The notes beneath the pieces were generated by a model. The model saw only the letters and a program-made list of their open reading frames with translations, did no database searches and was not told the DNA's origin. A stretch of 64,000 nucleotides of DNA from Thauera carbonicopians (GTDB lineage: Bacteria > Pseudomonadota > Gammaproteobacteria > Burkholderiales > Rhodocyclaceae), in NCBI RefSeq assembly GCF_025699485.1, contig NZ_JANUXN010000005.1:62001-126000 (forward strand), in the 5' to 3' direction. This document shows positions 2,586 to 47,866 of this stretch, piece after piece; the stretch's first letter is position 1; each line of letters starts with the position of its first letter. Made by a program: the position numbers and the translations under genes.

Positions 2586-4238
2586 ATGGATCAACGCCGC
2601 CTCATCCTCTTCCTGGTTTTCTCCTTCTCGCTGGTGATGCTGTGGGAAGGCTGGATCAAGCATAACAACCCTGCGCCGGCAGCCCAGACGACGGCTACCG
2701 CCGGCGCAGCGGCCGACGGTTCGGTGCCGACGCCGTCGGCCGGCCTGGCTGCAAGCCAGAACGCCGTGCCCGGCGGGCAGGCCGCCACCGCCACGGCGCC
2801 GCGCACCGTGGTCGAGACCGACCTGCTGCGTGCCGAAGTGTCCGCCGAGGGCGGCGACATCGTCCGCCTCGAACTCAAGCAGCACCAGGCCAGCGGCGAG
2901 AGCGACGCCAACTTCGTGCTGCTGGACGACGGCTCGGTCCGCCACCAGTATTTCGCCCAGTCCGGCCTGATCGGCGAAGGCCTGCCGACGCACAAGACGC
3001 TGTTCGCGCTACCGGCCTCCGAACTGGCGCTGAAGGACGGCGAGGACCAGGTCGAACTGCGCCTGCAGGCGCCCGAGCAGAACGGCCTGCAGGTCACCAA
3101 GGTGATGCGCTTCCAGCGCGGCAGCTACCTGATCGACGTCAGCTACGAGATCAACAACGGCAGCGGCCAGGCCATCGCTCCGCACGCCTACTTCCAGCTC
3201 ACCCGCGACGGCAATGCCGCCGAGCAGGTCGAAGCTTTCGGCGTGAATACCTTCACCGGCCCGGCCTTCTTCACCGACGCCGAGAAGTTCCAGAAGGTGC
3301 ATTTCGACGACATCACCGAAGGCAAGGCCAAGTTCGTCAAGAACGCCAGCGACGGCTGGGTGGCGATGGTGCAGCACTACTTCGTCAGCGCCTGGCTGCC
3401 GGAGCAGGGCGCGCAGCGCGAATACTTCGCCCGTCCGCTGGGCAACAACATGTTCTCGGCCGGCCTGATCATGCCGGTAGCCGCGATCGAACCGGGTGCG
3501 CAGGCCACGGTCGGCACCCGCCTGTACGCCGGCCCGCAGGAGCAGGACAAGCTCGAAGGCATCGCCCCGGGCCTCGACCTGGTGGTCGACTACGGCTGGC
3601 TGACGGTGATCGCCGCGCCGCTGTTCTGGGTGCTGTCGTGGTTCCACAAGCTGACCGGCAACTGGGGCTGGGCCATCATCCTGGTGACCGTCGCGCTCAA
3701 GCTGCTGTTCTTCCCGCTGTCGGCCGCCAGCTACAAGTCGATGGCCAAGATGCGCGTGCTCGGCCCGCGCCTGCAGCGCATGAAGGAGCTGTACGGCAAC
3801 GACAAGGCCAAGATGCAGCAGGAGATGATGAATCTCTACCGCACCGAGAAGATCAACCCGCTCGGCGGCTGCCTGCCCATCCTGGTGCAGATCCCGGTGT
3901 TCATCGCGCTGTACTGGGTGCTGCTGGGCAGCGTCGAGATGCGCCACGCGCCGTGGCTGGGCTGGATCCAGGATCTGTCGGCGAAGGACCCCTACTTCAT
4001 CCTGCCGATCATCATGGGCGCTTCCATGCTGATCCAGATGAAGCTGAACCCGACGCCGCCGGACCCGATCCAGGCCAAGGTCATGATGGCGATGCCGATC
4101 GTGTTCACCTTCATGTTCCTGTGGTTCCCGTCCGGCCTGGTGCTGTACTGGGTGGTCAACAACATCCTGTCGATCGCCCAGCAATGGCAGATCACGCGGA
4201 TGATCGAAAGTGCAAAACCCGGCAGCAAGGACGCCTGA
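2586..4238 (+). CDS. yidC: Membrane protein insertase YidC
   Basis: YidC inserts and folds inner-membrane proteins, alone or with SecYEG. The 550-residue sequence has an N-terminal membrane anchor (residues about 6-22), a large periplasmic beta-rich domain to about residue 345, and the conserved C-terminal insertase core beginning [21 protein letters not shown] with a cytoplasmic helical hairpin ([14 protein letters not shown]) and further membrane helices. Length is typical for Gram-negative YidC. The mnmE GTG start lies inside its last codons (29-bp overlap). Confidence 0.97.
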
Positions 4239-5571
4239 CACCATTGCCGCCATCGCGACGGCACCGGGCCGGGGAGGCATCGGTGTCGTTCGCGTCTCGG
4301 GCGCCAGTCTGAGTGAATTTGCCGCCGCGCTCTGCGGCCGCGCGCCGCAGCCGCGCAAGGCCATGCTGGCGACCTTCACCGATGCTGCCGGCGAGGCCAT
4401 CGACCAGGGCATCCTGCTCCATTTCCCCGGCCCCGCCTCCTTCACCGGTGAGGACGTGCTCGAACTGCAAGGCCACGGCGGTCCGGTGGTCATGCAGATG
4501 TTGCTGGCACGCTGCCTCGAACTCGGCGCCCGCCTCGCCGAACCCGGCGAATTCACCCGCCGCGCCTTCCTCAACGGCAAGCTCGACCTCGCTCAGGCCG
4601 AAAGCGTCGCCGACCTCATCGAAGCCTCGACTGCCGCCGCCGCCCGTTCCGCGGTGCGCTCGCTGTCCGGCCGCTTCTCGGAAGAAATCCACCGCATCGT
4701 CGATGCGCTGATCGACCTGCGCATGCTGGTCGAAGCCACGCTGGACTTCCCCGAGGAAGAAATCGAATTCCTCGAACGCGCGCGCGCAATGCCGCGCCTC
4801 GAAGAAATCCGCGACAAGCTCGAAAGCGTGCTCGACCGTGCCCGCCAGGGCGCGCTGCTGCGCAGCGGCCTCAACGTCGTGCTGGTCGGCGAACCCAACG
4901 TCGGCAAATCCAGCCTGCTCAACCAGCTCGCCGGCGAAGACCGCGCCATCGTCACCGACATCGCCGGCACCACCCGCGACGCGCTGCGCGAGACGATCCA
5001 GATCGAAGGCATTCCGCTGCACATCATCGACACTGCCGGCCTGCGGGAAACCGCCGACACCGTCGAACGCATCGGCATCGAACGCACCTGGCGCGAAATC
5101 GAACGCGCCGACGTCATCCTGCGCCTTATCGACGCCAGCGCGACCACGCCGGACAGCGCTCCTGAAACCATCGACGCCCGCCTGCCGCGCGACGCCGAAC
5201 GAATCACCGTCGTCAACAAGATCGACCTCGCCGGCCTCGAAGCCGGCCGTAGCGAAGACGAAAGCGGCCGCGTCCGCCTTCAGGTCGCCGCCCGCCACGG
5301 CACCGGCATCGATCTCGTCCGCGCCGAACTGCTGCGCATCGCCGGCTGGCACGCCCACGGCGAAGACGTCATCCTCGCCCGCGAACGCCACCTCCACGCC
5401 CTGCGCGCCGCCCTCGCCCACGTCGAATCCGCCGCCACCCAGTCCGCCGCCCTCGAACTCTTCGCCGAAGAACTGCGCCTGGCGCAGGAAAGCCTCGGCG
5501 AGATCACCGGGGAGTTCAGTGCGGACGATCTGCTGGGGGTGATCTTTTCGAGGTTTTGCATCGGGAAGTGA
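4210..5571 (+). CDS. mnmE: tRNA-modifying GTPase MnmE (TrmE)
   Basis: MnmE works with MnmG to install the (carboxymethyl)aminomethyl group on U34 of certain tRNAs. The 453-residue protein has the N-terminal folate-binding domain ([21 protein letters not shown]), a G domain around residues 225-345 with [13 protein letters not shown] and NKID motifs, and the C-terminal FCIGK with its conserved cysteine. The GTG start overlaps yidC. The last 15 bp (5557-5571) are repeated at 21503-21517: a genomic island has inserted here, leaving the coding sequence intact. mnmG is not in the window. Confidence 0.96.
5557..5571 (+). repeat. attL, left direct repeat of the island
   Basis: The sequence TGCATCGGGAAGTGA forms the last codons and stop of mnmE and is identical to 21503-21517. 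With one mismatch the match extends to 18 bp leftward (TTTTGC versus TTCTGC). Confidence 0.88.
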
Positions 5572-5755: not shown

Positions 5756-6946
5756 ATGGCACTGACCGACACTGCGCTCAAGGCACTCAAGCCCAGGGAC
5801 AAGACCTATACGGTCACCGACGACCGGGGGCTGTATGTGGAGGTCTTCCCGACCGGAGGCGTCGTCTGGCGCTACCGCTACCGGCTGAATGGCAAGTACG
5901 AGAAGCTGACACTCGGCAAGTACCCCGCACTGACGCTGAAGAACGCCCGCCTGAAGCGGGACGAGGCGGCCCACCAGGTGGCGATGGGAGAGTCGCCAGC
6001 AAAGAAGAAGCAGCAGGAAAAGGTGGCCGGCGCAGAAGACGCCACCGTGGCCGAATTCGCCGCACGCTTCTTCAAGGACATCCAGTCACGCGACCGCAAG
6101 AACGTGACCATGCCGCGCCGCTACCTGGAAAAGGACATCCTGCCGCACATCGGCAGCAAGCCGATCCGGGACATCACCGCCGAGGACGTGCGCAGCATCA
6201 TCTGGCGCAAGAAGGAACAAGGCTTCGATGCCGCCGCCGGCCAAGTGCGCGGCCTGCTCAAGCGCATGTTCGATTACGCGCTGACCTGCGGCCTGATCCA
6301 GGCCAACCCGGTCATGGCCCTGCCCATGCGGCACGTCTACCGCGCCGCCGCCCGCGACCGGGCGCTAACGCCGGACGAAATCCGGCAGTTCCTGCGCGCC
6401 ATGCAGACCTCCAACATCCGTCGCCAGTTCAAGATCGCCTTCCAGTTGATCCTGATGACCCTGGTGCGCAAGTCCGAGCTGATGCTGGCGCAGTGGAAGG
6501 ACGTGCATCTGGACGAAGGCGAATGGCACATCCCGGTCGAGAACTCCAAGACCGGCAAGCCGCACATCGTCTACCTGTCCACGCAGGCGCAGACGTTGTT
6601 CAAGGAACTCAAGCCGCTCGCCAGCAGCAGCGTCTGGGTGTTGCCGGGGCGCGGAACCCTGGCCAAGCCCTTTGCCAACAACGCGCTGAACCAGGCGCTG
6701 AAGGTGTCATTGCAGGGGCAGGAAATCCCGGCATTCACCATTCACGACCTGCGGCGCACCGCATCGACGCTGCTGCACGAACAGGGCTGGCCTTCGGACG
6801 TGGTGGAAAAGGCGCTGAACCATACCATCGGCGGCGTGCGGGGAGTCTACAACCGGGCGGAATACGCCGAGCAGCGGCGGGAGATGTTGCAGGCGTGGGC
6901 GGACTACATCGACGGGTTGGCACCGTCGGCCAATTTGGTGGTGTGA
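5756..6946 (+). CDS. P4-type tyrosine integrase of the island
   Basis: The 396-residue protein has the DUF4102-type N-terminal domain (TDTALKALKPRDKTYTVTDDRGLYVEV), a SAM-like core-binding region, and a catalytic domain with R238 (LVRKSE), H330-x-x-R333 (HDLRR), H356 and nucleophile Y365. All catalytic positions are present, so it should be active. I chose the ATG at 5756 because GGAGG lies 6 bp upstream; a reading from 5717 has no such site. Its position beside attL and its direction are typical of islands using a gene 3' end as attB. Confidence 0.93.
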   Translation: MALTDTALKALKPRDKTYTVTDDRGLYVEVFPTGGVVWRYRYRLNGKYEKLTLGKYPALTLKNARLKRDEAAHQVAMGESPAKKKQQEKVAGAEDATVAEFAARFFKDIQSRDRKNVTMPRRYLEKDILPHIGSKPIRDITAEDVRSIIWRKKEQGFDAAAGQVRGLLKRMFDYALTCGLIQANPVMALPMRHVYRAAARDRALTPDEIRQFLRAMQTSNIRRQFKIAFQLILMTLVRKSELMLAQWKDVHLDEGEWHIPVENSKTGKPHIVYLSTQAQTLFKELKPLASSSVWVLPGRGTLAKPFANNALNQALKVSLQGQEIPAFTIHDLRRTASTLLHEQGWPSDVVEKALNHTIGGVRGVYNRAEYAEQRREMLQAWADYIDGLAPSANLVV

Positions 6947-7070
6947 GTCCGTCCGGGGCGCTGGTGGCCTTTCCCTTTTTGGGGTAGGGCCGTTGCCCCT
7001 TGATTGCCATTCCCTTACCCCCTGCCTTTTCCTTTGTGGCAGGTATTTGTGATCGACGATGATTATCAGA

Positions 7071-7102
7071 CAATGATACAATACTAAATCAACGTGTCAT
7101 TG
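7071..7102. promoter_or_regulatory. Inverted repeat before the winged-helix gene, possible operator
   Basis: CAATGA at 7071-7076 is mirrored by TCATTG at 7097-7102, 12 bp before the ATG of the winged-helix regulator. A TACAAT hexamer at 7077-7082 could be a -10 element. Autoregulation by the downstream protein is possible but inferred. Confidence 0.3.
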
Positions 7103-7113
7103 GATTTGCGATC

Positions 7114-7431
7114 ATGAAACGCTGCATTGTGGGTATCCGACAGCCAGAAGGCTCGCTACCGAAGGGAAGCGAAACGCCCAGCATTTGGTTTCCGTCCCTG
7201 GCATCACTAGCAGCAGTGCTGTCGGACGACAACCGCCGCCTGCTGCGCCTGATCCATAACAAACAACCCAAGTCTCTGACCGAGCTGGCCGAACTCAGTG
7301 GCCGCAAGGTGCCGAACCTGTCGCGCACCCTGCGGATGATGTCGGATTACGGCCTGGTATCGCTGCAGCGCAATGTTCGGGATGTTCAGCCGACAGCGCT
7401 GGCGACTAAGTTTCTGGTGGTGCTGGATTGA
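7114..7431 (+). CDS. Winged-helix DNA-binding protein (HVO_A0114-like)
   Basis: This 105-residue protein has a central winged-helix segment (LSDDNRRLLRLIHNKQPKSLTELAELSGRKVPNLSRTLRMMSDYGLVSL) typical of small MarR/ArsR-like regulators grouped with HVO_A0114. The sequence shows a recognition helix and wing but no sensor domain. It precedes the Mrr-type nuclease gene, overlapping its longest possible frame, and an inverted repeat lies just upstream. I infer that it represses or times expression of the defence operon; an antitoxin-like role is the alternative. Confidence 0.7.
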   Translation: MKRCIVGIRQPEGSLPKGSETPSIWFPSLASLAAVLSDDNRRLLRLIHNKQPKSLTELAELSGRKVPNLSRTLRMMSDYGLVSLQRNVRDVQPTALATKFLVVLD

Positions 7432-7457
7432 TGGCTATGAATACGAGAGGGAATGCA

Positions 7458-8450
7458 ATGGCACGGATGTGGATGGTGCGCGGTGAAGGTGGCAGCCTGT
7501 ATGACGCCTTTCGAGAACGCGGCGTAGCTGCCGTGGGCTGGAATCAATTGGCAGCCCATGCCAAACCCGGCGTCGGACGCAAGCAGCTAATCGCCCTGTA
7601 CCAGTCTGCCGAACCACAGGCAAAGCAAGGCACAGTGGTATCGGGTGCATCCCAGGTCTGGCGTTTCGTTAACGACATCCAGGATGGCGACTGGGTCATC
7701 ACCTATTCGCCAGCCAATCGCCTGTACTCGATCGGCAAGATCACAGGACCAGCCGAGCATCACCCTGAGTGGGCCGAGCAAGGCATGCCACTGGCGCGCA
7801 AGGTGCAGTGGCAAACGCAGGAATTGCCGCGTGATAGTTTGGGCACCAGCACAAAGAACAGTCTGGGCTCGACCCTGACCCTGTTCGAAGTGCCATCCAG
7901 CGCAACAACCGAGGTTTTGGCAACGCTGAAGGGCAAACCGGTGCCGGTTGTGGAAGATGAAGCCGAGGAAGTCATCGCCGATCCACTGGCTGACATCGAG
8001 TCCCAGGCGCTGGAGCGCATCAAGGATCGGGTCAACGAACTCGACTGGGACGACATGCAGCAACTGGTCGCCGGCATCCTGCGCGCCATGAGCTACAAGA
8101 CTCAAGTTTCACCACCTGGCTCAGACCGGGGCAAGGACATCGTCGCATCGCCCGACGGCTTCGGCTTCGAACACCCGCGCATTGTCGTGGAGGTCAAGCA
8201 CCGCAAAGGACAGATGGGCAGTCAGGAAATCCGCAGCTTCCTCGGCGGCCGTCACAAGGATGATCGCGGGCTATACGTCAGTACTGGCGGCTTCACCAAG
8301 GACGCCCAGTACGAAGCAGATCGAGCATCCATCCCGCTGGCAATGTGGACGCTGGATCATGTGGTGCGCGCGCTGATCGAGCACTACGACGCCACCGATG
8401 CCGAAACCAAACGAATCGTGCCGCTGAAGCGGCTGTACTGGCCTGCCTGA
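7458..8450 (+). CDS. Mrr-type restriction endonuclease with N-terminal reader-like domain
   Basis: The C-terminal half (from about residue 190) is an Mrr_cat nuclease of the PD-(D/E)xK fold: GSDRGKDIVAS supplies the acidic residue and IVVEVKH the ExK. The first 140 residues (MWMVRGEGG..., DGDWVITYSP, LYSIGKITGP) resemble EVE/PUA-like domains that read modified bases; that assignment is from pattern only. Together they suggest a type IV, modification-dependent restriction enzyme. I chose ATG 7458 because GAGAGGG lies 6 bp upstream; in-frame TTG 7428 and ATG 7431 overlap the preceding stop. Confidence 0.75.
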   Translation: MARMWMVRGEGGSLYDAFRERGVAAVGWNQLAAHAKPGVGRKQLIALYQSAEPQAKQGTVVSGASQVWRFVNDIQDGDWVITYSPANRLYSIGKITGPAEHHPEWAEQGMPLARKVQWQTQELPRDSLGTSTKNSLGSTLTLFEVPSSATTEVLATLKGKPVPVVEDEAEEVIADPLADIESQALERIKDRVNELDWDDMQQLVAGILRAMSYKTQVSPPGSDRGKDIVASPDGFGFEHPRIVVEVKHRKGQMGSQEIRSFLGGRHKDDRGLYVSTGGFTKDAQYEADRASIPLAMWTLDHVVRALIEHYDATDAETKRIVPLKRLYWPA

Positions 8451-8467: not shown

Positions 8468-10486
8468 GTGACGTCCACAGAACAACAGATCGAACAATTC
8501 ATCGGCATATTGGTTTCCCTTGGCGGCAGCGCGGGCAATCAGCGCTTGCTTGAAGCGCTGGGCTGGCAGGACAGTATCTACCAACGCGTCAAGCAGCAAC
8601 TGATCGACGACGGCCGCATCCGCCCTGGGCGCGGGCGCGGCGGCTCAGTTGCCATTGTCGAGAACGCCTCATCCTTGCCCAAACCTGTCACCGAACCATC
8701 AGCGGCCATCAAGCGGCAAGCCAACGAGACCCGCAAGGAAGACAAGCATGACGCAATACGGGACAAAGACATGAGACCCATCGAACAACAGTTCTTCAAC
8801 GACCTGGAAAAGAAGCTCTGGATCGCTGCCGACAAGCTGCGCTCCAACCTCGACGCTGCAGTGTACAAACACGTCGTGCTCGGGCTGATCTTCCTCAAGT
8901 ACGTTTCAGATGCCTTCGAAGAGCGGCAACGGGAACTGCGCGAACAGTTCACCAATCCGGATCATGACTACTACATGGACCCGGACGAATACGGCGGCGC
9001 AGGCACCCAGGAGTACGAAGACAACATCGCCGCCGAGCTTGAAGTCCGCGACTACTACACCGAGAAGAACGTGTTCTGGGTGCCTGTAGAAGCGCGCTGG
9101 CAAACCCTGCGCGACTGCGCGCAACTGCCGCCCAAGGCGGCGCTGCCCTGGAACAAACCCGGCAAGGACGAGCCCGAGGAAATGCGCTCGGTCGGCTGGC
9201 TGATCGACAACGCCATGGAAGCCGTCGAGCGTGAGAACGCCCGCCTGAAGAACGTGCTCAACAAGGACTTCGCCCGCGTGCAGCTCGACTCCAGCAAGCT
9301 GGCCGGGCTGATCAGCCACTTCTCGGATACCGACTTCAGCGCCAAGGAGTACAAGGGCCAGCCGCTGGACCTGAAATCCAAGGATATCCTCGGCCACGTC
9401 TACGAATACTTCCTCGGCCAGTTCGCCCTGGCCGAAGGCAAGAAGGGCGGCCAGTACTACACTCCAAAGAGCATCGTCACCCTGATCGTGGAAATGCTCC
9501 AGCCGTTCAAGGGCCGCGTGTACGACCCGGCCATGGGCTCCGGTGGCTTCTTCGTGCAAAGTGAGGAGTTCATCGAACAGCACGGCGGTAAAGCCGCCAA
9601 TGGCAAAAGCGGGCAGATCAGCGTCTACGGGCAGGAAAGCAACCCCACTACCTGGCGGCTGGCTGCGATGAATATGGCCATTCGCGGTATCGACTTCAAC
9701 TTCGGAAGCGGCCCGGCCGACACCTTGCTGAACGACCTGCACCCGGACCTACGCGCCGATTTCGTCATGGCCAACCCGCCCTTCAACATGAAGGAATGGT
9801 GGAACGAAAAGCTGGCCAACGATCCGCGTTGGATCGCCGGCACGCCGCCGCAGGGCAACGCCAACTTCGCTTGGTTGCAGCACATGCTCTGGCACCTGGC
9901 ACCCACCGGCAGCATGGCGTTGCTACTGGCCAATGGTTCCATGAGTTCCAACACCAACAACGAAGGCGAAATCCGCAAGCGGCTAATCGAAGACGACTAC
10001 GTGGAATGTATGGTCGCGCTGCCCGGTCAGTTGTTCACCAATACCCAGATTCCAGCCTGCATCTGGTTTCTGACCCGCGACAAGCAGAACGGCTTCGCGC
10101 TGGACAAGAAAAAGCGCGACCGACGCGGCAAGTTCCTGTTCATTGACGCTCGCCAGTTGGGCTATATGAGGGACCGCGTGCTGCGCGACTTCACCGCCGA
10201 CGACATCCAGAAAATCACCGATACCTTCCATGCCTGGCAGCAGGGTGAAGGGTATGAGGATGTGGCTGGCTTCTGCCATTCTGCCAAGTTGGACGAAATC
10301 CGCAAGCATGAGCATGTACTCACACCCGGGCGCTATGTGGGCGCGGTGGAGCAGGAAGATGACGGTGAGCCCTTTGCCGAGAAGATGCGGCGATTGACGG
10401 CACAACTGGCGGGGCAGTTTGCGGAGAGTGCGAAGCTGGAAGAAGAGATCAAGAAGAATTTGGCGGGGTTGGGATATGAGTACTGA
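8468..10486 (+). CDS. hsdM: Type I restriction-modification system methyltransferase subunit
   Basis: HsdM is the N6-adenine methyltransferase of the type I complex. Residues about 120-670 match the N6_N4_Mtase family with the HsdM_N helical domain ([40 protein letters not shown]), AdoMet motif [10 protein letters not shown] near residue 353 and catalytic NPPF at 436-439. The first 110 residues form an additional winged-helix-like domain ([29 protein letters not shown]) joined by a charged linker. The GTG start follows AGAGGA. The 3' end overlaps hsdS by 11 bp. Confidence 0.93.
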
Positions 10487-11858
10487 CTGGCAAACAGTGA
10501 GGATTGGCGACCTCGGAAAAGTGATTACGGGGAAAACGCCATCCACCGCCATTTCAGAGAATTTCGGTGGACCCTATCCGTTTATCACCATTCCAGACTT
10601 AGATGACCGTAGAGAAATAACAACGTCGGCTCGAACACTTTCGGAACTCGGCGCTCACGCAATGCGATCTTGTCGGCTGCCCAGTGACGCAGTGATGATG
10701 TCGTGCATTGCCACTGTTGGAAAATGCGGAATAACAACGAAAGAGAGTTTCACCAATCAGCAGATCAATAGCCTTATCTGCAAAGATGGCATTGATCCAC
10801 GATTCGTGTACTACAGCTTTACTCAACTTGGAAAAGCATTAGAAGCTGCTGGTGGTGGCGGTTCGGTATATACAAATGTCTCCAAATCCAGGTTTGAAGC
10901 GATTGAAATCAGGCTCCCCCCGCTGAAGGAGCAGAGGTCTATAGCAGAAATGCTGGCAAGGCTAGACGACAAAATTGCCCTCAACCACCGCATCAACCAA
11001 ACCCTCGAAGCCATGGCGCAAGCCATCTTCAAATCCTGGTTTGTCGATTTCGACCCGGTCAAGGCCAAGATCGCCGCCATCGAACAAGGCGAAGATCCGC
11101 TGCGCGCCGCCATGTGCGCCATCAGCGGCAAGACCGACGCCGAACTCGACCAGATGCCCCGCGAGCACCACAACCAACTTGCCGCCTCTGCCGCGCTATT
11201 TCCCGATGCCATGGAAGAGTCGGAGCTAGGAAGTATTCCGAAGGGATGGAGCTTTCGTCAAATAGCTCAATTTGGTGAGGTGGTGTGTGGCAAGACACCC
11301 GCAAAAAGCAATCCAGGTTACTTCGGGTTAGGCACGCCATTTATAAAAATTCCGGACATGCACAATAATGTGTATGTCACTCAGCCATCTGAGCAACTCA
11401 CTGTACAGGGAGTTGCATCGCAACCCAAAAAAACGATCCCGCCGGGTTCAATTTGCGTTAGCTGTATAGCGACGGTTGGTAAGGTGATTTTGGTTCATCA
11501 ACCATCTCAGACTAATCAGCAAATTAATAGCATCATCCCCCGTCGGCTTGAATATAGCTTTTATCTATATTTCCAGATGCTAGAAAAACAGCAAGTGTTT
11601 TTTGATCTAGCAAGTGGGGGAAGCGCGACCCTGAATATGAATACTTCTATTTTTTCAAAAGTAGAAACGCTGCTACCTGAAGATGGAGTTATCATAAAAT
11701 TCAGCGAACTCATTTCGCCCGTTTTTTCTCAAATCCTTGCCAATCAAAAGCAGGCTGATAATTTGGCTGAGATTCGCGACAGCCTCCTTCCCAAACTCCT
11801 TTCCGGCGAACTGCGCATTCCCGATACTGAACGTATTTTGGAGGAGGTGTGGCCATGA
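10476..11858 (+). CDS. hsdS: Type I restriction-modification specificity subunit
   Basis: The 460-residue protein has two target-recognition domains: residues about 5-140 ([17 protein letters not shown]) and about 255-430 ([16 protein letters not shown]). They are separated by a conserved coiled-coil region ([36 protein letters not shown]), with a second conserved helix at the C-terminus ([16 protein letters not shown]). Both TRDs carry CIATVGK and TNQQINS, so they belong to one subfamily. TRD DNA is clearly more AT-rich than the conserved spacer, a sign of domain exchange. It overlaps hsdM by 11 bp and kwaA by 4 bp. Confidence 0.92.
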
Positions 11859-12436
11859 CAAACGTACGCCGGAAAGTGGACCTTTACATCCTATCTCTCG
11901 GACTGTTATTCGTCTTCTTTGTCATTATTGCGGCGGAGCCTCCAGCTTCTTCCTTTTCTTTCAAGGATGCCGGGAGCTGGAAAGCCCTTGTGGTGAACAA
12001 TCCTTTGCCCGTGGTTTCGACATTGGGGCTGCTTTATTGCCTGTTTGCATACATTCGCTTTGACTTCGATTTGAAAGGCGCTAACGAGATACCTTTTGAA
12101 GTCAAGAAGCTGGAAAACATAAACTATGAGCACCTGACATTTCTTGCTACCTATGTGGTACCACTCATCAGCTTCGATTTTGGCAGTGGCCGACAAATGA
12201 TTGTACTGGCGTTGCTACTGATAGTGATGGGGGTCATCTACATCAAGACGGATCTGTTTTACGCCAACCCGTCTTTGGCGCTTCTTGGGTTCCACATCTA
12301 CCGTGCCAGCGGTCATTTCAAGAATGGCGAGCGAGAAGGCATCACGTTGATTTGTCGTGAACGATTGGTGGAGAACCAAAAGCTTTCCTACATAAAACTG
12401 GATGACAGAATTTACTACGTCAGGGGAACAAAGTGA
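11855..12436 (+). CDS. kwaA: Kiwa anti-phage system membrane protein KwaA
   Basis: The 193-residue protein has four hydrophobic helices (about residues 9-28, 50-68, 93-108, 114-133) and a soluble C-terminal tail of about 60 residues, the architecture of KwaA. In Kiwa, KwaA forms an inner-membrane complex that senses phage attachment or injection and holds KwaB. GGAGGAGG lies 7 bp before the ATG at 11855, which decides the start over the GTG at 11849. It overlaps the hsdS stop (ATGA) and the kwaB GTG start. Codon use is more AT-rich than hsdM or hsdR. Identification rests on topology plus the adjacent DUF4868 gene. Confidence 0.82.
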   Translation: MTNVRRKVDLYILSLGLLFVFFVIIAAEPPASSFSFKDAGSWKALVVNNPLPVVSTLGLLYCLFAYIRFDFDLKGANEIPFEVKKLENINYEHLTFLATYVVPLISFDFGSGRQMIVLALLLIVMGVIYIKTDLFYANPSLALLGFHIYRASGHFKNGEREGITLICRERLVENQKLSYIKLDDRIYYVRGTK

Positions 12437-13401
12437 CCGTGGATGAATTGAAAGCTGCCTTGCAGGCCTACTATAACGATCAGGCTAATATCGGCGTTTG
12501 CGTGTATGCGCTGATGAAGGATGCCAATAATCCCGGTCCTTTCAAGCTGGACATTGAGGCCGATGCACAGGCTGGCCTTAAGGACTTGTTTCTACAAAGC
12601 CTGCGTGACGAAATTTCTAGCAAAGAGGAACTGTCGGCACTTGCCTTATCGAGTGCGGATGAGCGAGTCAATGCTATCTATGTTTACGATCTCGATATCC
12701 CCGAGGAGCTGACATCACTTGAGGCTGTCATTGCTCAAGATGATCTGCCCATGCTGGATTTGAATGAAAAAAGCCTGTCTTCGATCAAGGCGCTGCTCAT
12801 CGAAATGGGCAACGACATCGGCCAGTTGGTTTTGTACAAGACTATGGCTCCCGTCAATATCTTTGGTCGATCGAGTTTTTTTCTGCGTAAGCATGAAAGT
12901 CGACTTGAACGGATGAATGACGAATTTCTGCGCGTCAGTGCCGGGTTTCAGATGTTGCGGATTAATGATGCCTTGCTGGTGCTGAATCTTGAGGCATTAG
13001 AGCATAATTTCGGGTTCCACGATGTGATCAAAAAGGAGGCTGCATTGGGTATTAATGCCATTGTCTCGGCTGCGTTGGTGACCAATCCGGATGTCTTGCG
13101 AGAGCTTGTCGATGATGTCAAATATGCACGTCGCCTCACCAAAATTGCCAAAGCTTCTCCTGTACTTAAAGCTGGTATTTCAGGGAAAAGCATTGTCAAT
13201 TTTTGCAAGACATTTCCCGAACTTGTTGGCCGCATTCGATTTAATGAAGAAAGCAATAAAGTGATACTTGATACCAAGGTATCCAAGGACTTGTTCATCA
13301 AGGTGTTAATGGACGATTTCCTAACTTCTGAACTCACAAAATTTCATTACGCCAGTGTCGCAAAAGACGCTGTAGAGCCAAGAGTGGAGGAAGCCGACTA
13401 A
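12433..13401 (+). CDS. kwaB: Kiwa anti-phage system effector KwaB (DUF4868)
   Basis: This 322-residue soluble protein matches the DUF4868 family pattern: an N-terminal alpha/beta region ([31 protein letters not shown]), then a conserved block [38 protein letters not shown] and a C-terminal helical region ending [10 protein letters not shown]. KwaB binds DNA and, with KwaA, blocks phage replication and late transcription in studied Kiwa systems. The GTG start overlaps kwaA by 4 bp. The stop overlaps the next small ORF by 1 bp. Length fits KwaB of about 315 residues. Confidence 0.85.
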
Positions 13402-13523
13402 TGGCCTTTCTGTCGGAAACCGCTGCCAAGAAAGCGCTGCTGCCCGCACAGAAGGAACGGATGGTGCGGCTGATCGAGTACTTCATGCTGCTAAGAGGCG
13501 ATACGGAAGAACGGACGACATGA
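13401..13523 (+). CDS. 40-residue ORF between kwaB and hsdR, unknown
   Basis: An ATG overlapping the kwaB stop opens a 40-codon frame ([18 protein letters not shown]..., later [15 protein letters not shown]) whose TGA overlaps the hsdR ATG. The exact fit between two neighbours, GC-rich third positions and overlap at both ends suggest it is translated, at least to couple kwaB and hsdR. The predicted peptide is one amphipathic helix. It could be a remnant of a gene deleted between hsdS and hsdR when Kiwa inserted. I do not recognise a family. Confidence 0.5.
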
Positions 13524-16500
13524 GCATTACCGAACAGCAACTCGAAGACGCCGCTATCGGCTGGTTTGGCGAACTGGGCTGGCAGTACGTCAATGGCCCG
13601 GACATTGCGCCGGATGGCGACAGCCCAGCCCGTACCGACTATCGCCAGACCGTACTACGAGAACGCCTGTTAGCTGCGCTGGTCCGCATCAACCCGCAGA
13701 TGCCTGCCAGTGCATTGGAACAGGCTGCGCACGAACTGCTGACCGTCAGCGATCCGCTACTGATCGCCCGCAACCGCCGCGTGCATCGCTTACTGCTGGT
13801 CGGCATTCCGGTTGAGTTTTCAGTGGGCGACGAGAAACGCAGCGATCTGGTCAATCTCATCGACTTCGCCAACCCACGCAACAATGACTTCCTGCTGGTT
13901 AGCCAATTCACCGTGGCCGGCACCAAGCAGCCGCGCCGCCCCGACTTGGTGGCCTTCGTCAACGGTCTGCCGCTGGCCGTGATCGAGCTAAAGAACCCAG
14001 CCAATGAGCAAACCGATATCTGGGATGCCTTCAACCAGATACAGACCTACAAGGAAGAAATCGGCGACCTGTTCAACACCAATGTGGCGGTGGTGGTCAG
14101 CGACGGCTTCACGGCGCGGCTGAGCTCGCTGACGGCGAACCAGGAGCGTATGCAGCCCTGGCGGGCGATCGTGAATGAGGACGACCGGCCGCTCCTGGAG
14201 TTCGAGTTGGAAACGCTGGTGCGCGGTTTCTTCGCGCCTGCGCTGTTTCTCGACTATGTGCGCCACTTCGTGCTGTTCGAGCAAGACGCCGACCAGATCA
14301 TCAAGAAGATCGCGGGCTACCACCAGTTCCATGCGGTGCGCGAAGCGGTAAAAGCCACGGTGATCGCCGCCAACAGTCCGAACAAAGACATGCTAGAGGT
14401 ACAGGAGCCGCGCGCCACCTATGGTAAGGAAGTGCAGCCCGGCAGCCGCAAGGCCGGCGTGGTGTGGCATACGCAAGGCTCGGGCAAGAGCATCACCATG
14501 GCCTGCTACGCGGGCAAGCTGTTGCAGCAGCCGGAGATGAAGAACCCCACGCTGGTAGTGGTGACCGACCGCAACGATCTAGACGGGCAATTGTACGGCA
14601 CCTTCTGCGCCGCCGAAGACCTGCTGCGGCAGACACCGGTGCAAGCCGGCAGCCGCGAGGAACTTCGCGAGATGCTGGCCTCGCGTGAGGCGGGCGGCAT
14701 CATCTTCACCACGGTGCAGAAGTTCGCCCTGCTGGACGATGAGGAGCAACACCCGTTGCTATCGGATCGCAACAATATCGTGGTGATCTCCGACGAGGCG
14801 CACCGTAGCCAGTACGGCATGAAGGGGCGGCTGGATACCAAGACCGGCAAGTACGTATTCGGCTATGCCAAGCACATGCGCGACGCACTGGCTAATGCCA
14901 CCTTCATCGGTTTCACCGGCACGCCCATCGCGCTGGAAGACAAGGACACGCGGGCGGTTTTTGGCGACTACGTCAGCATCTACGACATCCAGGATGCGGT
15001 GGACGATGGCGCCACGGTGCCGATCTTCTACGAAAGCCGCTTGGCCAAGCTGGACGTGAACCAAGCCGAGATCGACGCACTCAATGCCCAGGTGGATGAG
15101 GTCATTGAGGACGAGGAAGACATCACTGCCCGCGAAAAGACCAAGAGTGATTGGGCTGCGCTGACCAAGTTGGTGGGCGCGCAGCCGCGCCTGGAGCAGG
15201 TGGCATCAGATCTGGTGCAGCATTTCGAGATACGAACGGCCACGCTGGAAGGCAAGGCGATGATCGTCTGCATGAGCCGTGATATTTGCGCCGAGCTGTA
15301 CAACGCCATCGTCGCTCTGCGCCCCGATTGGCACGACGCCGACCCCGAAAAGGGTGCGATCAAGGTGGTGATGACTGGCTCGGCAGCGGACAAGCCCTTG
15401 CTGCAGCCGCATCTATACAGCCAGCAGGTGAAGAAACGCCTGGAAAAGCGCTTCAAAGACCCGGCAGACCCGTTGAAGCTGGTGATAGTGCGCGACATGT
15501 GGCTGACGGGCTTCGACGCGCCCTGCTGCCACACCATGTATGTAGATAAGCCCATGAAGGGCCACAACCTGATGCAGGCTATCGCCCGCGTCAACCGGGT
15601 GTTCCGCAACAAGCCCGGTGGATTGGTGGTGGACTACATCGGCATTGCCAACGAACTGAAAGCGGCGCTCAAGACCTACACCGAATCCAAGGGCAAGGGC
15701 GACCCGGCGCACAACGCGGCCGAAGCCCTGGCGGTGCTGCTGGAGAGGCTGGACATCGTGCGCGGGCTAATGCACGGCTTCGATTACAGCGGGTTCGAGA
15801 CCAACGCGATGAAGTTGCTGGTGCCGGTGGCCAACCATATCCTGGGGCTGAAGGACGGCAAGCAGCGTTTCCTCGATGCCATACTGGCGGTGAGCAAGGC
15901 GTTTTCCCTATGCAGCACGCTGGACGAGGCCGCCGCCCTGCGCACGGAGATCGCCTTCTTCGCCGCCGTCAAGGCCGCCATCGTCAAGTTCACCACGGTG
16001 GATCGCAAGCGTTCCGACGCGGACAAGAATAGCGCGCTCAAGCAGATCCTGGACAATGCCATCGTGGCAGACGGGGTGGCGGACATCTTCGCCCTGGCGG
16101 GCCTGGACAAGCCCAACATCGGCTTGCTGTCGAACGAGTTCCTGGAAGACGTGCGGCAGATGAAGAGCCGCAACCTGGCGGTGGAACTGCTGGAAAAGCT
16201 GCTGCGCGACGAGATCAAGGCGCGCTCACGCAACAACGTGGTGCAGGAGAAGAAGTACGGCGACCGCCTGCTGGAAACCTTGCGAAAGTACCACAACCGG
16301 GCAGTGGAGACGGCGCAGGTCATCGAGGAACTGATCCAGATGGCCAAGGACTTCCAGGCGGCGCTGGAGCGCGAAGCGGCGCTGGGGCTGAATCCGGACG
16401 AGATCGCCTTCTACGATGCGCTGGCCAACAACGAAAGCGCCGTGCGGGAGTTGGGCGACGATACCTTGAAGAAGATCGCCGTCGAGATCACTGAGAAGCT

Positions 16501-16672
16501 GCGCAACAGCACTACGGTGGATTGGCAAGTGCGCGAGAGCGTGCGGGCGAAGCTGCGGATTCTGGTGCGACGCACGCTGAAGAAGTGGAAGTACCCGCCG
16601 GTGGGTGAGGACGCCGCCATCGAACTGGTGCTGAAGCAGGCGGAATCGCTGTCGAACGCTTGGTCGAAGTGA
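13520..16672 (+). CDS. hsdR: Type I restriction endonuclease subunit R
   Basis: HsdR translocates DNA with ATP and cleaves at a distance when the site is unmodified. The 1050-residue protein has an N-terminal PD-(D/E)xK nuclease ([21 protein letters not shown], ExK near residue 157), an SF2 motor with Walker A TQGSGKS near 318-324, the DEAH box in [11 protein letters not shown] near 425, FTGTPI, and late motifs [12 protein letters not shown] and ARVNRVF, then a helical C-terminus that binds HsdM. All key residues are present. Its ATG overlaps the 40-codon ORF stop, placing it in the same transcript as kwaAB. Confidence 0.95.
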
Positions 16673-16695
16673 TCGGCGTAGGCGGAGGAGAAACG

Positions 16696-18372
16696 ATGAC
16701 CCAATCAGACTTGAGCCAGCGACTGGACAACCTGATAGCCACCTGGGAAAACGAGGTGGTGGAATTTAAGCAGGCCTGCAACGACTACAGCACCGACGAC
16801 ATCGGCAAATACTTCTCTGCGCTAGCTAACGAATCCAACCTGCGCGGCACCGATGGCGGTTGGCTGGTGTTCGGCGTGAACAACAAGACCCGTCGCGTGG
16901 TCGGCACGGACTATCGCCCACAATCCGAGCGCCTGCATTCGCTGAAGATGCAGATTGCCGAAAATGCGGAGCCTCGCATCACCTTCCGCGAAATCCATGA
17001 ACTGGCCCACGCCGATGGTCGCGTGCTGATATTTGAAATCCCCGCTGCGCCGCAGGGTATTCCGATTGCCTGGAAGGGCCACTACTATGCCCGCGCTGGT
17101 GAAAGCCTGACATCGCTGGGCTTGGACAAACTAGATGACATCCGCCGCCAAACGCTCGCTCAAGATTGGACGGCCCAGGTGGTTCCTGGCGCCACGCTGG
17201 ATGATCTGGATGACGCCGCAGTACAAAAAGCGCGTGAGTCTTTTGCACAGAAATATGCCAACCGCTTCCAGCTTGGTGAAGTAGAAGGCTGGTCGCTGGC
17301 AACCTTTCTTGACCGTGCCCGCGTCACGCAGAATGGCCAAATAACACGTGCCGCACTGCTGTTGCTTGGCAAGGCGGAATCGTCTTTTCGCCTGTCTCCC
17401 TATCCGGCGCAACTGACCTGGAAGCTGGAAGGCCAGGAGCGGGCCTACGAACACTTCGGCCCGCCATTTCTGCTGAGTACGACACGACTCTACCAACGCA
17501 TTCGCAACATTCAGCTTCGGTTGCTGCCGCAAGACGAGCTGTTGCCTATCGAGGTCTCGAAATACGACCAGAAAATCGTGCTGGAGGCCCTGCACAATTG
17601 CCTTGCCCATCAGGACTACACCCGCAATGGGCGCGTGGTGGTGACAGAGTTGCCGGACAGGCTGGTGTTCGAAAATGAAGGCAGCTTCTTCGAGGGACAG
17701 CCCGACGAATACATCCAGGGCGACAAGACACCACGCCGATACCGTAATCCAGCTTTGGCCCAGGCAATGGTCGAACTAAACATGATCGACACGATGGGCT
17801 ATGGCATTCACTCCATTTATACGGGGCAGGCAAGACGCTACTTCCCATTGCCGGACTACGACCTGAGTGAGCCCGGTGCCGTCAAGCTGACGATCTATGG
17901 TGGCGTCGTGGATCCGGCCTATAGTCGTCTACTGATCCAGAACACTGATTTACCACTGGCGGATGTGCTGGCACTGGATCGTGTGCAGAAAAAGTTGCCT
18001 ATTCCGGACGATGCCGCCGCACGTTTGCGACGCAACAGGCTGATCGAAGGGCGCAAACCCAACTTCCACGTATCAGCCGCCGTAGCCGAGGCAACTGCAA
18101 ACAAGGCCGATTACATCCGCACCCGGGCGCAAGATGACGAGTTCTACGCCAAACTGCTGACCGACTATCTAGAGAAGTTTGGTCAAGCGAACCGTGCCGA
18201 GATCAACAAGTTGCTCATGGTCAAATTGAGCGATGCCCTGGATGACAAGCAGAAGTACAACAAGATCAGCAGCCTGCTGACCAGGCTGCGCCGCCATGGG
18301 GTGATTGTGAACACCGGCTCAGACACGGCTCCTTGCTGGCGGCTGACAGAGAGAATTGCAGAGAGAAATTAG
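16696..18372 (+). CDS. AlbA_2/Schlafen-domain putative ATP-binding protein
   Basis: The N-terminal 140 residues form an AlbA_2 (Schlafen-like) domain: ENEVVEFKQACNDYSTDDIGKYFSALANESNLRG then GWLVFGVNNKTRRVVG. The middle resembles the HATPase-like part of RecG-related proteins (EALHNCLAHQDYTRNGRVVV, MGYGIHSIY), and the C-terminus carries winged-helix segments. Such genes often accompany type I restriction loci, but the role is not established. I chose ATG 16696, which has GGAGGAG 6 bp upstream, over an earlier in-frame GTG at 16660 that overlaps hsdR. Confidence 0.75.
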   Translation: MTQSDLSQRLDNLIATWENEVVEFKQACNDYSTDDIGKYFSALANESNLRGTDGGWLVFGVNNKTRRVVGTDYRPQSERLHSLKMQIAENAEPRITFREIHELAHADGRVLIFEIPAAPQGIPIAWKGHYYARAGESLTSLGLDKLDDIRRQTLAQDWTAQVVPGATLDDLDDAAVQKARESFAQKYANRFQLGEVEGWSLATFLDRARVTQNGQITRAALLLLGKAESSFRLSPYPAQLTWKLEGQERAYEHFGPPFLLSTTRLYQRIRNIQLRLLPQDELLPIEVSKYDQKIVLEALHNCLAHQDYTRNGRVVVTELPDRLVFENEGSFFEGQPDEYIQGDKTPRRYRNPALAQAMVELNMIDTMGYGIHSIYTGQARRYFPLPDYDLSEPGAVKLTIYGGVVDPAYSRLLIQNTDLPLADVLALDRVQKKLPIPDDAAARLRRNRLIEGRKPNFHVSAAVAEATANKADYIRTRAQDDEFYAKLLTDYLEKFGQANRAEINKLLMVKLSDALDDKQKYNKISSLLTRLRRHGVIVNTGSDTAPCWRLTERIAERN

Positions 18373-18495
18373 AGAACCGCAAAGAGAATCCGATTAAACC
18401 AATTAAAAATCAATAGGTTATACGATTACTCGGCGCTCGGAAGTCCGAATCTTTGCAGAGAGGCATGAGAGGCTTGGGGATGTTGGTGCCCAATC

Positions 18496-19359
18496 TCAGG
18501 TACCCAGATAGATCGACGTCACTTTCAGTCTTTCATGTCCAAGTTCGCGGCTGATCTGCTGTCTGGCGTGCTGGTCAATCGTTCGTTGGCTTGCGCTGAA
18601 CAGGGCTTTAGTTGGCCCACCCGCCGCCGGAGCTTTCCAGCCTGTGAGCGCCTCATACCGCATTTGCGCGTACCGATGCCGCAGTCCGTGCATGTTGCTC
18701 AGACCCGCCGCCTTGCACTGGCCGTCATAGACGTGCCGTTGCTGGATGTAGGTCTTGTGCGCCGAGATAAGCGAGCCCAAGCCAGTCAGCTGCTGTGCTT
18801 CGTCCAGTACTACACGCTGCTCCGGCGTAGTGATCGGTACTGTCCGGTCACGTCCGCCCTTGGCCCATGAGCCTTTGATGGCGATGTGGTCGCCGCGGTC
18901 GGCATAGAGGGGTTGGAACTTGATGGACTCCTCCCGCCGCAGGCCAAAGGCCGCTTGCAGACGTAGGCTCATACGGACGTGTGGATCGGTGATTTTGTTC
19001 AGCCCATCGCCCAGTTCCTTGGCCTTGCTCTCGTTAGTCACATAGCGGCGTTCAGGGATGCCCAGCTTGGTGTTGTCCGCTGGCAGGATGCCTGCCTTGC
19101 TGACCTTCTCGGCCCACCAGCGCAGGTGTGCCATGCGGTTCTTGATCGTGCCAGCCGACAGGCCTTCGGCTTGCCAGCGCTGCAACAGGGCTTCGACATG
19201 CTTGCCCTTGAGTGAGGTGGCTCGCATCTGGCGGAAGCCCGCCTCGCGCAGTTGGCGGGCGACCAGACTCAGTGATCGCTGCCGGTCGGCCTGGGTGGCG
19301 CGGCTGCCGTCGCGATTGCGCAGGCAGAGCTGGCGTAGGGTATAGGTCAGGTCGTCCAT
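18496..19359 (-). CDS. Integrase-domain recombinase of ICE type (Integrase_1-like)
   Basis: The 287-residue protein is a tyrosine recombinase with catalytic R141 (FGLRREE), H224-x-x-R227 (HGLRHR), H275 (LGHERLK) and Y284 close to its end. The N-terminal half is a helical core-binding domain. It resembles the integrase-like proteins in betaproteobacterial integrative elements rather than the P4-type integrase at the left end, and runs on the opposite strand to the defence operon. No strong ribosome-binding site is seen. It may act on another site or be left over from an older element. Confidence 0.75.
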   Translation of the reverse strand: MDDLTYTLRQLCLRNRDGSRATQADRQRSLSLVARQLREAGFRQMRATSLKGKHVEALLQRWQAEGLSAGTIKNRMAHLRWWAEKVSKAGILPADNTKLGIPERRYVTNESKAKELGDGLNKITDPHVRMSLRLQAAFGLRREESIKFQPLYADRGDHIAIKGSWAKGGRDRTVPITTPEQRVVLDEAQQLTGLGSLISAHKTYIQQRHVYDGQCKAAGLSNMHGLRHRYAQMRYEALTGWKAPAAGGPTKALFSASQRTIDQHARQQISRELGHERLKVTSIYLGT

Positions 19360-41518: not shown

Positions 41519-41654
41519 GGTGGGAAAGGCGGAGGAAGGGATGAGAGGTCCGGGGCAGCGACGGCGAAACGCCCGCTCCCCCTGGCCGGGCATCCCCGGT
41601 TGGGTGTCCGGCCAGGGAAGAGGCGGCGGCTGGAGAGGGAAAGGCTGCTGTTCT

Positions 41655-44600: not shown

Positions 44601-44744
44601 GGTGACTTCGATCTGCGGGAATTCCACCTCGGGCAGCGGCGCCACCGGCAGCAGCCGGTAGGCGAGCAGGCCGCACAGCACCAGCGCGATCGCGAGCAGG
44701 CAGCTCGCCACCGGCCGGCGGATGAAGGTGCGCGCCAGGTTCAT
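41655..44744 (-). CDS. mdtC: RND multidrug efflux transporter, MdtC-like
   Basis: The 1029-residue inner-membrane transporter starts [21 protein letters not shown], followed by [22 protein letters not shown] and the RND transmembrane motif [27 protein letters not shown] with the proton-relay Asp pair. Two halves with large periplasmic loops and twelve membrane helices are evident. In the MdtBC pump two transporter proteins form a heterotrimer. The start overlaps the mdtB stop by 4 bp. A longer frame reading upstream is a shadow through mdtB. Confidence 0.92.
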
Positions 44745-47700: not shown

Positions 47701-47866
47701 GACTGGCGCCCGGGTGGAAGGTGAACACCTGGATGATCGGGTAATCGACCTGGGGCAGCGCCGCCACCGGCAGCAGCCGCCAGGACAGCAGGCCGGAGAT
47801 GACGAGCGCGAGCATCAGCAGCGTGGTCGCCACCGGCCGCTCGATGAAGGGGCGGGAGATGTTCAT
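44741..47866 (-). CDS. mdtB: RND multidrug efflux transporter, MdtB-like
   Basis: The 1041-residue protein begins [21 protein letters not shown] with the [20 protein letters not shown] motif and the proton-relay segment [26 protein letters not shown]. Twelve membrane helices and two periplasmic domains are predicted from the hydrophobic pattern. Residues about 275-292 ([15 protein letters not shown]) form a short Cys-containing segment in the first porter domain. It is followed, with a 4-bp overlap, by the mdtC-like partner and preceded after 14 bp by the adaptor gene. Confidence 0.92.

What the first reader, a model, noticed from the sequence alone, without database searches (positions are those of the whole stretch)
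8468..16672. Kiwa genes embedded inside a type I restriction operon
kwaA and kwaB lie between hsdS and hsdR with 4-, 4- and 1-bp overlaps, so one transcript and coupled translation would make HsdM, HsdS, KwaA, KwaB, a short peptide and HsdR. Kiwa is known as a free-standing two-gene system. Nesting it in the restriction operon suggests either a cassette that inserts between hsdS and hsdR or functional cooperation: KwaA sensing phage at the membrane while HsdR cuts incoming DNA, with KwaB acting on survivors. The AT-rich kwaAB contrasts with the GC-rich hsdM/R, pointing to separate origin.
Basis: partly seen in the sequence, partly recalled or inferred. Interest (0 to 1): 0.85.

Follow-up and report, generated by a model that had tools for sequence, protein, structure and literature searches.

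The report
Kiwa module inside a restriction operon
An intact two-gene anti-phage system (Kiwa) sits inside a DNA-restriction operon, and a broken piece of a different restriction gene left beside it indicates that it was moved there as a block from another restriction operon.

Summary
Confirmed: intact kwaA and kwaB lie between hsdS and hsdR with 4-, 4- and 1-bp overlaps. The arrangement recurs: 16 of 29 Kiwa loci of a genome scan, 4 of them cut by contig ends, and 8 of 33 places in less biased draws. Kiwa-free sisters exist: L038 matches at 92-97% from integrase to AlbA_2, hsdS excepted, with a SIR2 gene in the slot.

The Kiwa DNA, from the hsdS 3' end to codon 14 of a foreign hsdR, matches L080 and L066 as one block (80-84%), while hsdM and hsdR belong to another lineage. 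The "short peptide" is best read as a recombination scar. Similar scars occur in 11 of 37 slots and in no control flank.

"Functional cooperation" is untested. Defence genes nested between hsdS and hsdR are in print (PMC12255303), as is a co-transcribed type I RM-Kiwa-DarTG unit (PMC12016545). New member of a known kind, with unusually clear traces of how it moved.

The parts
4210..5571 (+). mnmE (trmE); the island starts just beyond its 3' end
   Evidence: translation, named by recall of the MnmE sequence; in L064 the operon also lies beside the same gene
5756..6946 (+). tyrosine integrase with Arm-DNA-bind_3 domain
   Evidence: Pfam; 92% identical in L038
7114..7431 (+). small winged-helix gene (MarR / HVO_A0114-like), possible operon regulator
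   Evidence: Pfam; promoter-like match 7053-7082 just upstream, but such matches are not in excess of shuffles
7431..8450 (+). Mrr-type nuclease gene (PADLOC candidate PDC-S02)
8468..10486 (+). hsdM
   Evidence: Pfam N6_Mtase, HsdM_N
10476..11858 (+). hsdS, two target-recognition domains; 10968-11249 and the 3' end from about 11775 are conserved between relatives, the rest differs
11855..12436 (+). kwaA
   Evidence: NF041622 226 bits; dN/dS 0.10-0.12
12433..13401 (+). kwaB
   Evidence: NF041623 371 bits; PF16162; dN/dS 0.10-0.15
13401..13523 (+). 40-codon ORF, read here as a recombination scar: 13401-13442 is the start of a foreign hsdR, 13443-13523 the end of a RhuM-Fic gene
   Evidence: dN/dS 0.96, 1.01 and 1.79 over 40 codons
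11775..13442 (+). extent of the transferred Kiwa module (hsdS 3' end, kwaA, kwaB, 14 codons of donor hsdR)
   Evidence: one block with L080 (11775-13423, 79.7%) and with L066 (12242-13442, 83.6%; in L066 kwaA is cut on the left by what looks like an IS end, 200 bp from the contig start)
13520..16672 (+). hsdR of the resident lineage
   Evidence: TIGR00348, T1RH-like_C; in one clade with Kiwa-free L037 and L038
16696..18372 (+). AlbA_2 / Schlafen-type gene, possibly the last gene of the operon
   Evidence: Pfam; 94% identical in L038

Best explanation
The locus is a complete type I restriction operon on an integrase-bearing island beside mnmE, whose slot between hsdS and hsdR holds an intact Kiwa pair. 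Supported by sequence: Kiwa came as a block (hsdS 3' end, kwaA, kwaB, start of the donor's hsdR) from an hsd operon of another HsdR lineage. A join between codon 14 of the donor hsdR and the 3' end of a RhuM-Fic gene next to the resident hsdR left the 40-codon scar. Inferred: one transcript makes all the proteins, with translation coupled at the overlaps. Inferred from published work on Kiwa: HsdMSR cuts unmodified incoming DNA, while membrane-bound KwaA-KwaB acts separately on phage DNA at injection, so that phages escaping restriction meet a second block. The slot may stay in use because conserved hsdS and hsdR ends let cargo be exchanged without harming hsdM or hsdR.
For: Gene identity and intactness. 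Recurrence in 16 of 29 genome-scan loci (12 with hsd genes on both sides, 4 cut by a contig end) and 8 of 33 places in three less biased draws. Kiwa-free sisters L037 and L038 with HsdR 94-95% identical. One DNA block with L080 and L066 that ends in the donor hsdR start. The window's HsdR groups with L037, L038, L064 and L065, whereas its KwaB is nearest, after L064 and L065, to L066, L080 and L067, whose HsdR lie in another clade: a partner switch. hsdS differs (41-46% identity) between window and L064 or L065 while kwaAB is 92-96% and hsdR 94-96%, so hsdS is swapped around a retained Kiwa. Scars in 11 of 37 slots, 0 in 345 kb of control flanks.
Against: No expression or plating data. Independent additive action is assumed, not shown. 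The scar head is 14 residues (10 identical) and its tail 23 residues (14 identical); the 40-codon frame has stayed open in three species, which a neutral scar need not do, and its dN/dS rests on few changes. Both trees are quick searches. The genome scan favours near relatives of the window's KwaB. L066, one of the two donor-like loci, has a truncated kwaA.
Confidence: 0.74

Rival explanations
1. Guard or backup coupling, as in PrrC-EcoprrI: the restriction complex restrains or licenses Kiwa, and a phage anti-restriction protein that disables HsdMSR releases KwaAB.
For: kwaA follows hsdS within 26 bp in 17 of 25 loci tabulated, also in L121 where the order is hsdR-hsdM-hsdS-kwaA-kwaB (for L067 the kwaA start is). 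PrrC is genetically linked to a type Ic system and turned on when that enzyme is neutralised (PMC2610378, passages read; that it lies inside the operon is recalled). A group of 17 KwaB rows is mostly hsd-borne (14 of 17).
Against: A Kiwa pair cloned without restriction genes protects in a lactococcal host (PMC11514479, passages), and the E. coli Kiwa is known to act alone (recalled). Kiwa also sits after hsdR (L081, L142), between hsdM and hsdS (L151), and switches HsdR partners. The slot takes unrelated cargo. A 4-bp overlap is common in packed operons (recalled).
Confidence: 0.15
2. Plain defence-island clustering: Kiwa landed in the operon by chance, with no advantage of that position.
For: Many defence genes cluster. 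The difference from the Shedu control (0 of 12) is weak: p = 0.09 for 8 of 33, 0.04 if the two in-line neighbours are added, 0.22 for the phylum draw alone, 3 of 12.
Against: Recurrence in several separate KwaB groups and HsdR lineages with the same order; kwaAB kept under purifying selection while hsdS changes.
Confidence: 0.2
3. The 40-residue ORF is a functional peptide (antitoxin, leader or restriction modulator) and not a scar.
For: The frame is open with the same length in window, L064 and L065, and links kwaB to hsdR by 1- and 4-bp overlaps. An open frame may be kept for translational coupling.
Against: dN/dS 0.96-1.79 (few sites); DNA homology to the hsdR start of L066 and then to the rhuM end of L071. 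tblastn found the whole ORF only in L064 and L065 among the Kiwa loci, with a 23-residue piece in L071.
Confidence: 0.07
4. Kiwa entered the slot by its own mobile element (integrase or transposon) and not by recombination between hsd operons.
For: Some free-standing Kiwa pairs end beside an integrase gene (L057, L058, L082).
Against: The window slot holds no integrase or IS gene, and the block boundaries fall in hsdS and hsdR sequence. Short flanking repeats were not specifically excluded.
Confidence: 0.04

Closest known systems
Kiwa (KwaA-KwaB)
   Same: Both proteins pass the curated equivalog cut-offs and match the solved Kiwa chains (such as 9mrx, 9o0i); kwaA-kwaB order kept
   Different: Inside an hsd operon and not free-standing; 51-55% identical to the E. 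coli proteins
Type I RM-KwaAB-DarTG unit of GItrmA, Shewanella putrefaciens CN32 (PMC12016545)
   Same: Kiwa co-transcribed with a type I RM system on a mobile island; the unit cloned in E. coli protects against T1, EEP, T4 and T7, not T5
   Different: By locus tags Kiwa (3526-3527) lies beside the RM genes (3523-3525) and not between them; the share of KwaAB was not separated in the text I read
[quoted passage not shown]
   Same: Another defence module in exactly this slot; the authors call the site a potential recombination hotspot (passages)
   Different: Different cargo; the word Kiwa does not occur in the main text
PrrC-EcoprrI (PMC2610378)
   Same: Extra defence gene linked to a type Ic system (passages)
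   Different: PrrC is a tRNase physically associated with the RM enzyme; I know of no such contact for Kiwa
Guilt-by-embedding survey (Payne et al. 2024, bioRxiv 577857; not held, known only from citations)
   Same: General observation that defence genes nest inside other defence systems
   Different: Could not be read; it may already list Kiwa in type I operons

Membership tests
Kiwa | KwaA and KwaB by curated profiles | tested here: met
   226 bits (cut-off 100) and 371 bits (cut-off 200)
Kiwa | adjacent kwaA-kwaB pair on one strand, intact and under selection | tested here: met
   4-bp overlap; dN/dS 0.10-0.15
Kiwa | KwaA is an integral membrane protein | tested here: inconclusive
   a simple hydropathy scan finds three segments over threshold, as in an E. 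coli KwaA; no topology predictor run
Kiwa | anti-phage activity requiring both proteins | not testable with these tools
   needs plating
Type I restriction-modification system | HsdM, HsdS with two recognition domains, HsdR with nuclease and motor domains | tested here: met
   Pfam domains; NPPF, Walker A, DEAH and D-ELK motifs visible in the translations (motifs recalled)
Type I restriction-modification system | modification and ATP-dependent cleavage | not testable with these tools
   no methylome or enzyme assay
Defence module embedded between hsdS and hsdR | foreign defence genes between hsdS and hsdR on the same strand, absent from sister operons | tested here: met
Defence module embedded between hsdS and hsdR | one transcript | tested here: inconclusive
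   overlaps and small gaps; promoter- and terminator-like matches not above shuffles; no RNA data
PrrC-type guard | effector held inactive by the RM enzyme and released by an anti-restriction protein | not testable with these tools
   needs genetics or biochemistry

The most novel reading that the evidence does not exclude
Type I restriction operons act as cassette-collecting platforms: conserved hsdS 3' and hsdR 5' ends capture incoming defence modules one after another, leaving hsdR-5' or hsdS-3' scars. One Kiwa branch has specialised for this position, so that KwaAB works with HsdMSR (for example released or directed when a phage disables the restriction enzyme).
Probability: 0.17. Interest if true: 0.82.

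Novelty: new member of a known kind. Interest (0 to 1): 0.52.

Why it matters
It gives readable junctions (scars) that show how defence modules are swapped between restriction operons, and a prediction that can be tested elsewhere: hsdR-5' or hsdS-3' fragments mark places where cargo was added or lost. It also suggests that Kiwa is often inherited together with a type I system, so that its reported spectrum may need re-testing with its natural restriction partner.

Tried and rejected
Rejected: a one-strain accident (16 of 29 scan loci). Rejected: decayed genes (open frames, dN/dS 0.10-0.15 for kwaAB). Not favoured: entry by a Kiwa-borne integrase. Led nowhere: no KwaB relative in the phage collection at E up to 1e-5; the plasmid collection gave only two Emticicia KwaB records and 20 records with distant KwaA; no second copy of the mnmE 3' end with up to 3 mismatches in the window, so the far end of the island is not defined; no internal promoter or terminator above chance. 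The first gene-by-locus table used wrong frames of mine for the short ORF and hsdR and was replaced. The first scar scan used over-long hsdR starts and was redone with trimmed starts and control regions; a weak hsdS-like piece in L042 seen did not pass. Zhang et al. 2025 (Cell) and Payne et al. 2024 are not held, so whether they mention Kiwa in type I operons is unknown. Literature searches for this arrangement; I saw their listings and opened seven papers by passages or sections (PMC12904381, PMC13190303, PMC12255303, PMC12988326, PMC11514479, PMC12016545, PMC2610378), none in full. The only direct precedent I read is PMC12016545, listed.
Full report
OBSERVATION. The described order is real and intact. 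hsdM (8468-10486), hsdS (10476-11858), kwaA (11855-12436), kwaB (12433-13401), a 40-codon ORF (13401-13523) and hsdR (13520-16672) lie on the + strand with overlaps of 11, 4, 4, 1 and 4 bp. Curated models name KwaA (226 bits, cut-off 100), KwaB (371 bits, cut-off 200) and hsdR; Pfam names the HsdM and HsdS domains. The only PDB sequence matches of KwaA and KwaB are Kiwa chains. A winged-helix gene and an Mrr-type gene precede hsdM and an AlbA_2 gene follows hsdR with gaps of at most 25 bp, so the transcript may hold eight genes and the short ORF. Promoter- and terminator-like matches in this stretch are no more frequent than in shuffles. The host species was not determined.

RECURRENCE. A scan of genome contigs with a six-sequence KwaB alignment gave 29 loci. 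Reading their neighbourhoods with tblastn and with profiles built here, 12 have kwaAB between upstream hsd genes and hsdR on one strand (L064, L065, L067, L068, L070, L071, L073, L074, L075, L080, L084, L085; no hsdS was recognised in L084). In 4 more a contig end hides one side (L066, L076, L083, L087); in L066 kwaA is itself cut by what looks like the end of an IS transposase. One (L081) has kwaAB directly after hsdR with a 4-bp overlap. The other 12 show no such link, some of them on short contigs. Hosts of the embedded pairs include Alcaligenaceae, Lysobacteraceae, Comamonadaceae, Pasteurellaceae, Moraxellaceae, Gallionellaceae, Bacteroidales, Prevotella and Balneola. This scan favours near relatives of the window. 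Less biased draws, own genome left out: phylum, 12 places in 398 genomes; order, 18 places in 399; class, 4 places in 369. One place is shared, so 33 are distinct. Inside a type I operon: 8 of 33 (L042, L109 with its upstream side beyond the contig end, L112, L113, L119, L141, L143, L151). Two more are in line with one: L121 (after hsdS, order R-M-S-kwaA-kwaB) and L142 (after hsdR). Four of the remaining places could not be judged well: L116 and L149 lie at contig ends, and in L150 and L153 my profile did not find the short KwaB piece again; they are counted as not embedded. Shedu as control gave 0 of 12 with the same profiles. Fisher p is 0.09 for 8 of 33, 0.04 for 10 of 33 and 0.22 for the phylum draw alone, 3 of 12, so the excess over another defence family is suggestive only. 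The profiles were built from Kiwa-linked and HsdR-related loci and may miss other type I families.

TREES. On a KwaB tree of 63 rows the hsd-borne label needs 7 changes (6 forced by starred branches; shuffled mean 19.9, 0 of 500 as low). It is therefore clustered but arose or was lost several times: one group of 17 rows (14 embedded, 1 after hsdR, 2 free), one of Bacteroidota and Balneolota (3), one of L042, L109, L141, L143 (4), one of L112, L113, L151 (3), and L119. The E. coli and viral-contig Kiwa fall in a separate group of 8 free-standing rows. On an HsdR tree of 40 rows Kiwa needs 8 changes (6 forced), and the window's HsdR sits in a fully supported group of 5 with two other Kiwa carriers (L064, L065) and two Kiwa-free relatives (L037, L038). 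Both are quick searches, and several KwaB branches are long.

THE SLOT. I fetched the 20 best-scoring HsdR relatives (own genome aside, 119 of the 200 genomes searched have a match). hsdS and hsdR are both seen in 19. They touch in 2 (L041, L055) and are 0.8-5.7 kb apart in 17. Cargo named by profile includes SIR2 (L038), a Tmn-like YobI ATPase plus AlbA_2 (L037), AlbA_2 (L039, L048, L052), GmrSD (L045), AbiE (L047, L049), RhuM (L044, L052), DUF4917 and DUF3800 genes (L040, L053), AAA genes (L043, L047), and in L042 a PDC-S06 ATPase together with a clearly different Kiwa pair (KwaA 150 bits, KwaB 340 bits, PADLOC). Not every slot ORF was scanned. tblastn finds the window's KwaA or KwaB in none of the 20.

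HOW KIWA GOT THERE. DNA comparison: window and L080 share one block, 11775-13423 (79.7%); window and L066 share 12242-13442 (83.6%), the left end being where L066 kwaA is cut. Outside the block hsdR of both, and hsdM of L080 (L066 holds none), match only in patches (68-78%, and one 33-bp piece at 91%). Against the Kiwa-free L038 the window matches at 5756-8450, 8769-10478, 10968-11249 and 13607-18762 (88-92%). The Kiwa module therefore runs from the conserved hsdS 3' end to position 13442. The alignment with L066 continues without a gap across the kwaB stop for 42 bases (32 identical), which in L066 are the first codons of an hsdR of the MAFLSE type, and then stops. The window continues with a stretch that matches the end of the RhuM-Fic gene lying before hsdR in L071 (32 of 41 bases). 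None of 18,525 Met-starting 14-mers in the other ORFs reaches the 10 of 14 identities of the head. Between window, L064 and L065 the ORF has dN/dS of 0.96, 1.01 and 1.79 (40 codons), against 0.10-0.15 for kwaA and kwaB and 0.05-0.07 for hsdR. I read the ORF as a scar. L066 itself still shows kwaB, then 77 residues of HsdR start running into an HsdS-like tail, then rhuM, then the full hsdR.

GENERALITY OF SCARS. With HsdR starts (90 residues) and HsdS ends (40 residues) as queries at E at most 1e-4, fragments occur in 11 of 37 slots (106 kb): hsdR-5' in L037, L045, L052, L054, L066, L073, L074 (two) and L075; hsdS-3' in L044, L113 and L119 (two). There are none in 345 kb of flanks of the same set of loci. 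The best hit of each hsdR fragment begins at residue 1 of its query. In L073-L075 the fragment starts at the kwaB stop with a 4-bp overlap, as the full hsdR does in L080. The window's 14-codon scar is too short for this scan. The pattern fits one crossover in conserved hsdR (or hsdS) sequence and one illegitimate join (homology-facilitated illegitimate recombination, named from memory).

FUNCTION. Nothing here measures function. A review places KwaA in the membrane and KwaB on phage DNA at the injection site, without cleavage (PMC12904381, passages read; the primary Cell paper is not held). A cloned S. thermophilus Kiwa pair protects without restriction genes (PMC11514479, passages). The most economical reading is two independent layers under one control region. 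PrrC-type guarding is possible but not favoured, because Kiwa changes HsdR partners and also sits after hsdR or between hsdM and hsdS.

PRIOR ART. Nesting between hsdS and hsdR is in print for DarTG2 and for a two-gene unit in four genomes (PMC12255303, passages). PrrC is described as invariably linked to type Ic systems (PMC2610378, passages). A co-transcribed type I RM-KwaAB-DarTG unit that protects E. coli against four of five phages is in PMC12016545 (sections 5 and 8 read, passages elsewhere). The embedding survey by Payne et al. could not be read.

Noticed in passing
L062 14824-16220 (E. coli FORC_031); also L063 18,0-19.0 kb and the end of L060: Directly after hsdR (1-bp overlap in L062) lies a divergent Kiwa-like pair: 185 aa KwaA-like (PADLOC 57 bits) and 280 aa KwaB-like (50 bits), followed by a RhuM gene. 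73 of 5,426 E. coli genomes hold this stretch at 99% or more; in 9 of 10 listed records both genes are called hypothetical, in one the first is called KwaA family. FORC_031 also has a canonical free-standing Kiwa about 3.5 kb away.
   Followed up: partly
L056 7952-9408: KwaA-like gene overlapping the hsdS stop by 4 bp, followed by a 312 aa protein with no match in Pfam or PADLOC and no convincing KwaB match: possibly a KwaA with another effector.
   Followed up: partly
L042 7215-11176: A second Kiwa subtype (best models PDLC00215 and PDLC00235) in the same slot, behind a PDC-S06 AAA_13 gene; related embedded pairs in L109, L141, L143.
   Followed up: partly
L151 3315-4825: kwaAB between hsdM and hsdS and not between hsdS and hsdR.
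   Followed up: no
L119, about 10.9-12.0 kb, - strand: Two separate hsdS-3' fragments (40 and 41 residues) lie between hsdS and kwaA, as if cargo had been added and lost more than once.
   Followed up: no
L066 1-200 (Pseudoxanthomonas taiwanensis): kwaA has lost its first two thirds; the sequence before it reads like the end of an IS transposase (family recalled), 200 bp from the contig start.
   Followed up: partly
L060 10331-12652 (E. coli SMS-3-5): kwaB is interrupted by an ISVsa5-type element, as annotated.
   Followed up: no
window 21637-22740: Fic protein of the SoFic kind beyond the integrase-like gene at 18496-19359 and before a saccharopine dehydrogenase gene at 22824-24080; may belong to the same island.
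   Followed up: no
L038 2731-6532: Sister island with an extra 3.8 kb between the Mrr gene and hsdM, a second cargo position in the same operon.
   Followed up: no
window 41505-47866: Parallel repeats about 3.1 kb apart (70-81% identical in blocks) over two ORFs of 1055 and 1041 aa on the - strand, consistent with tandem paralogues.
   Followed up: no
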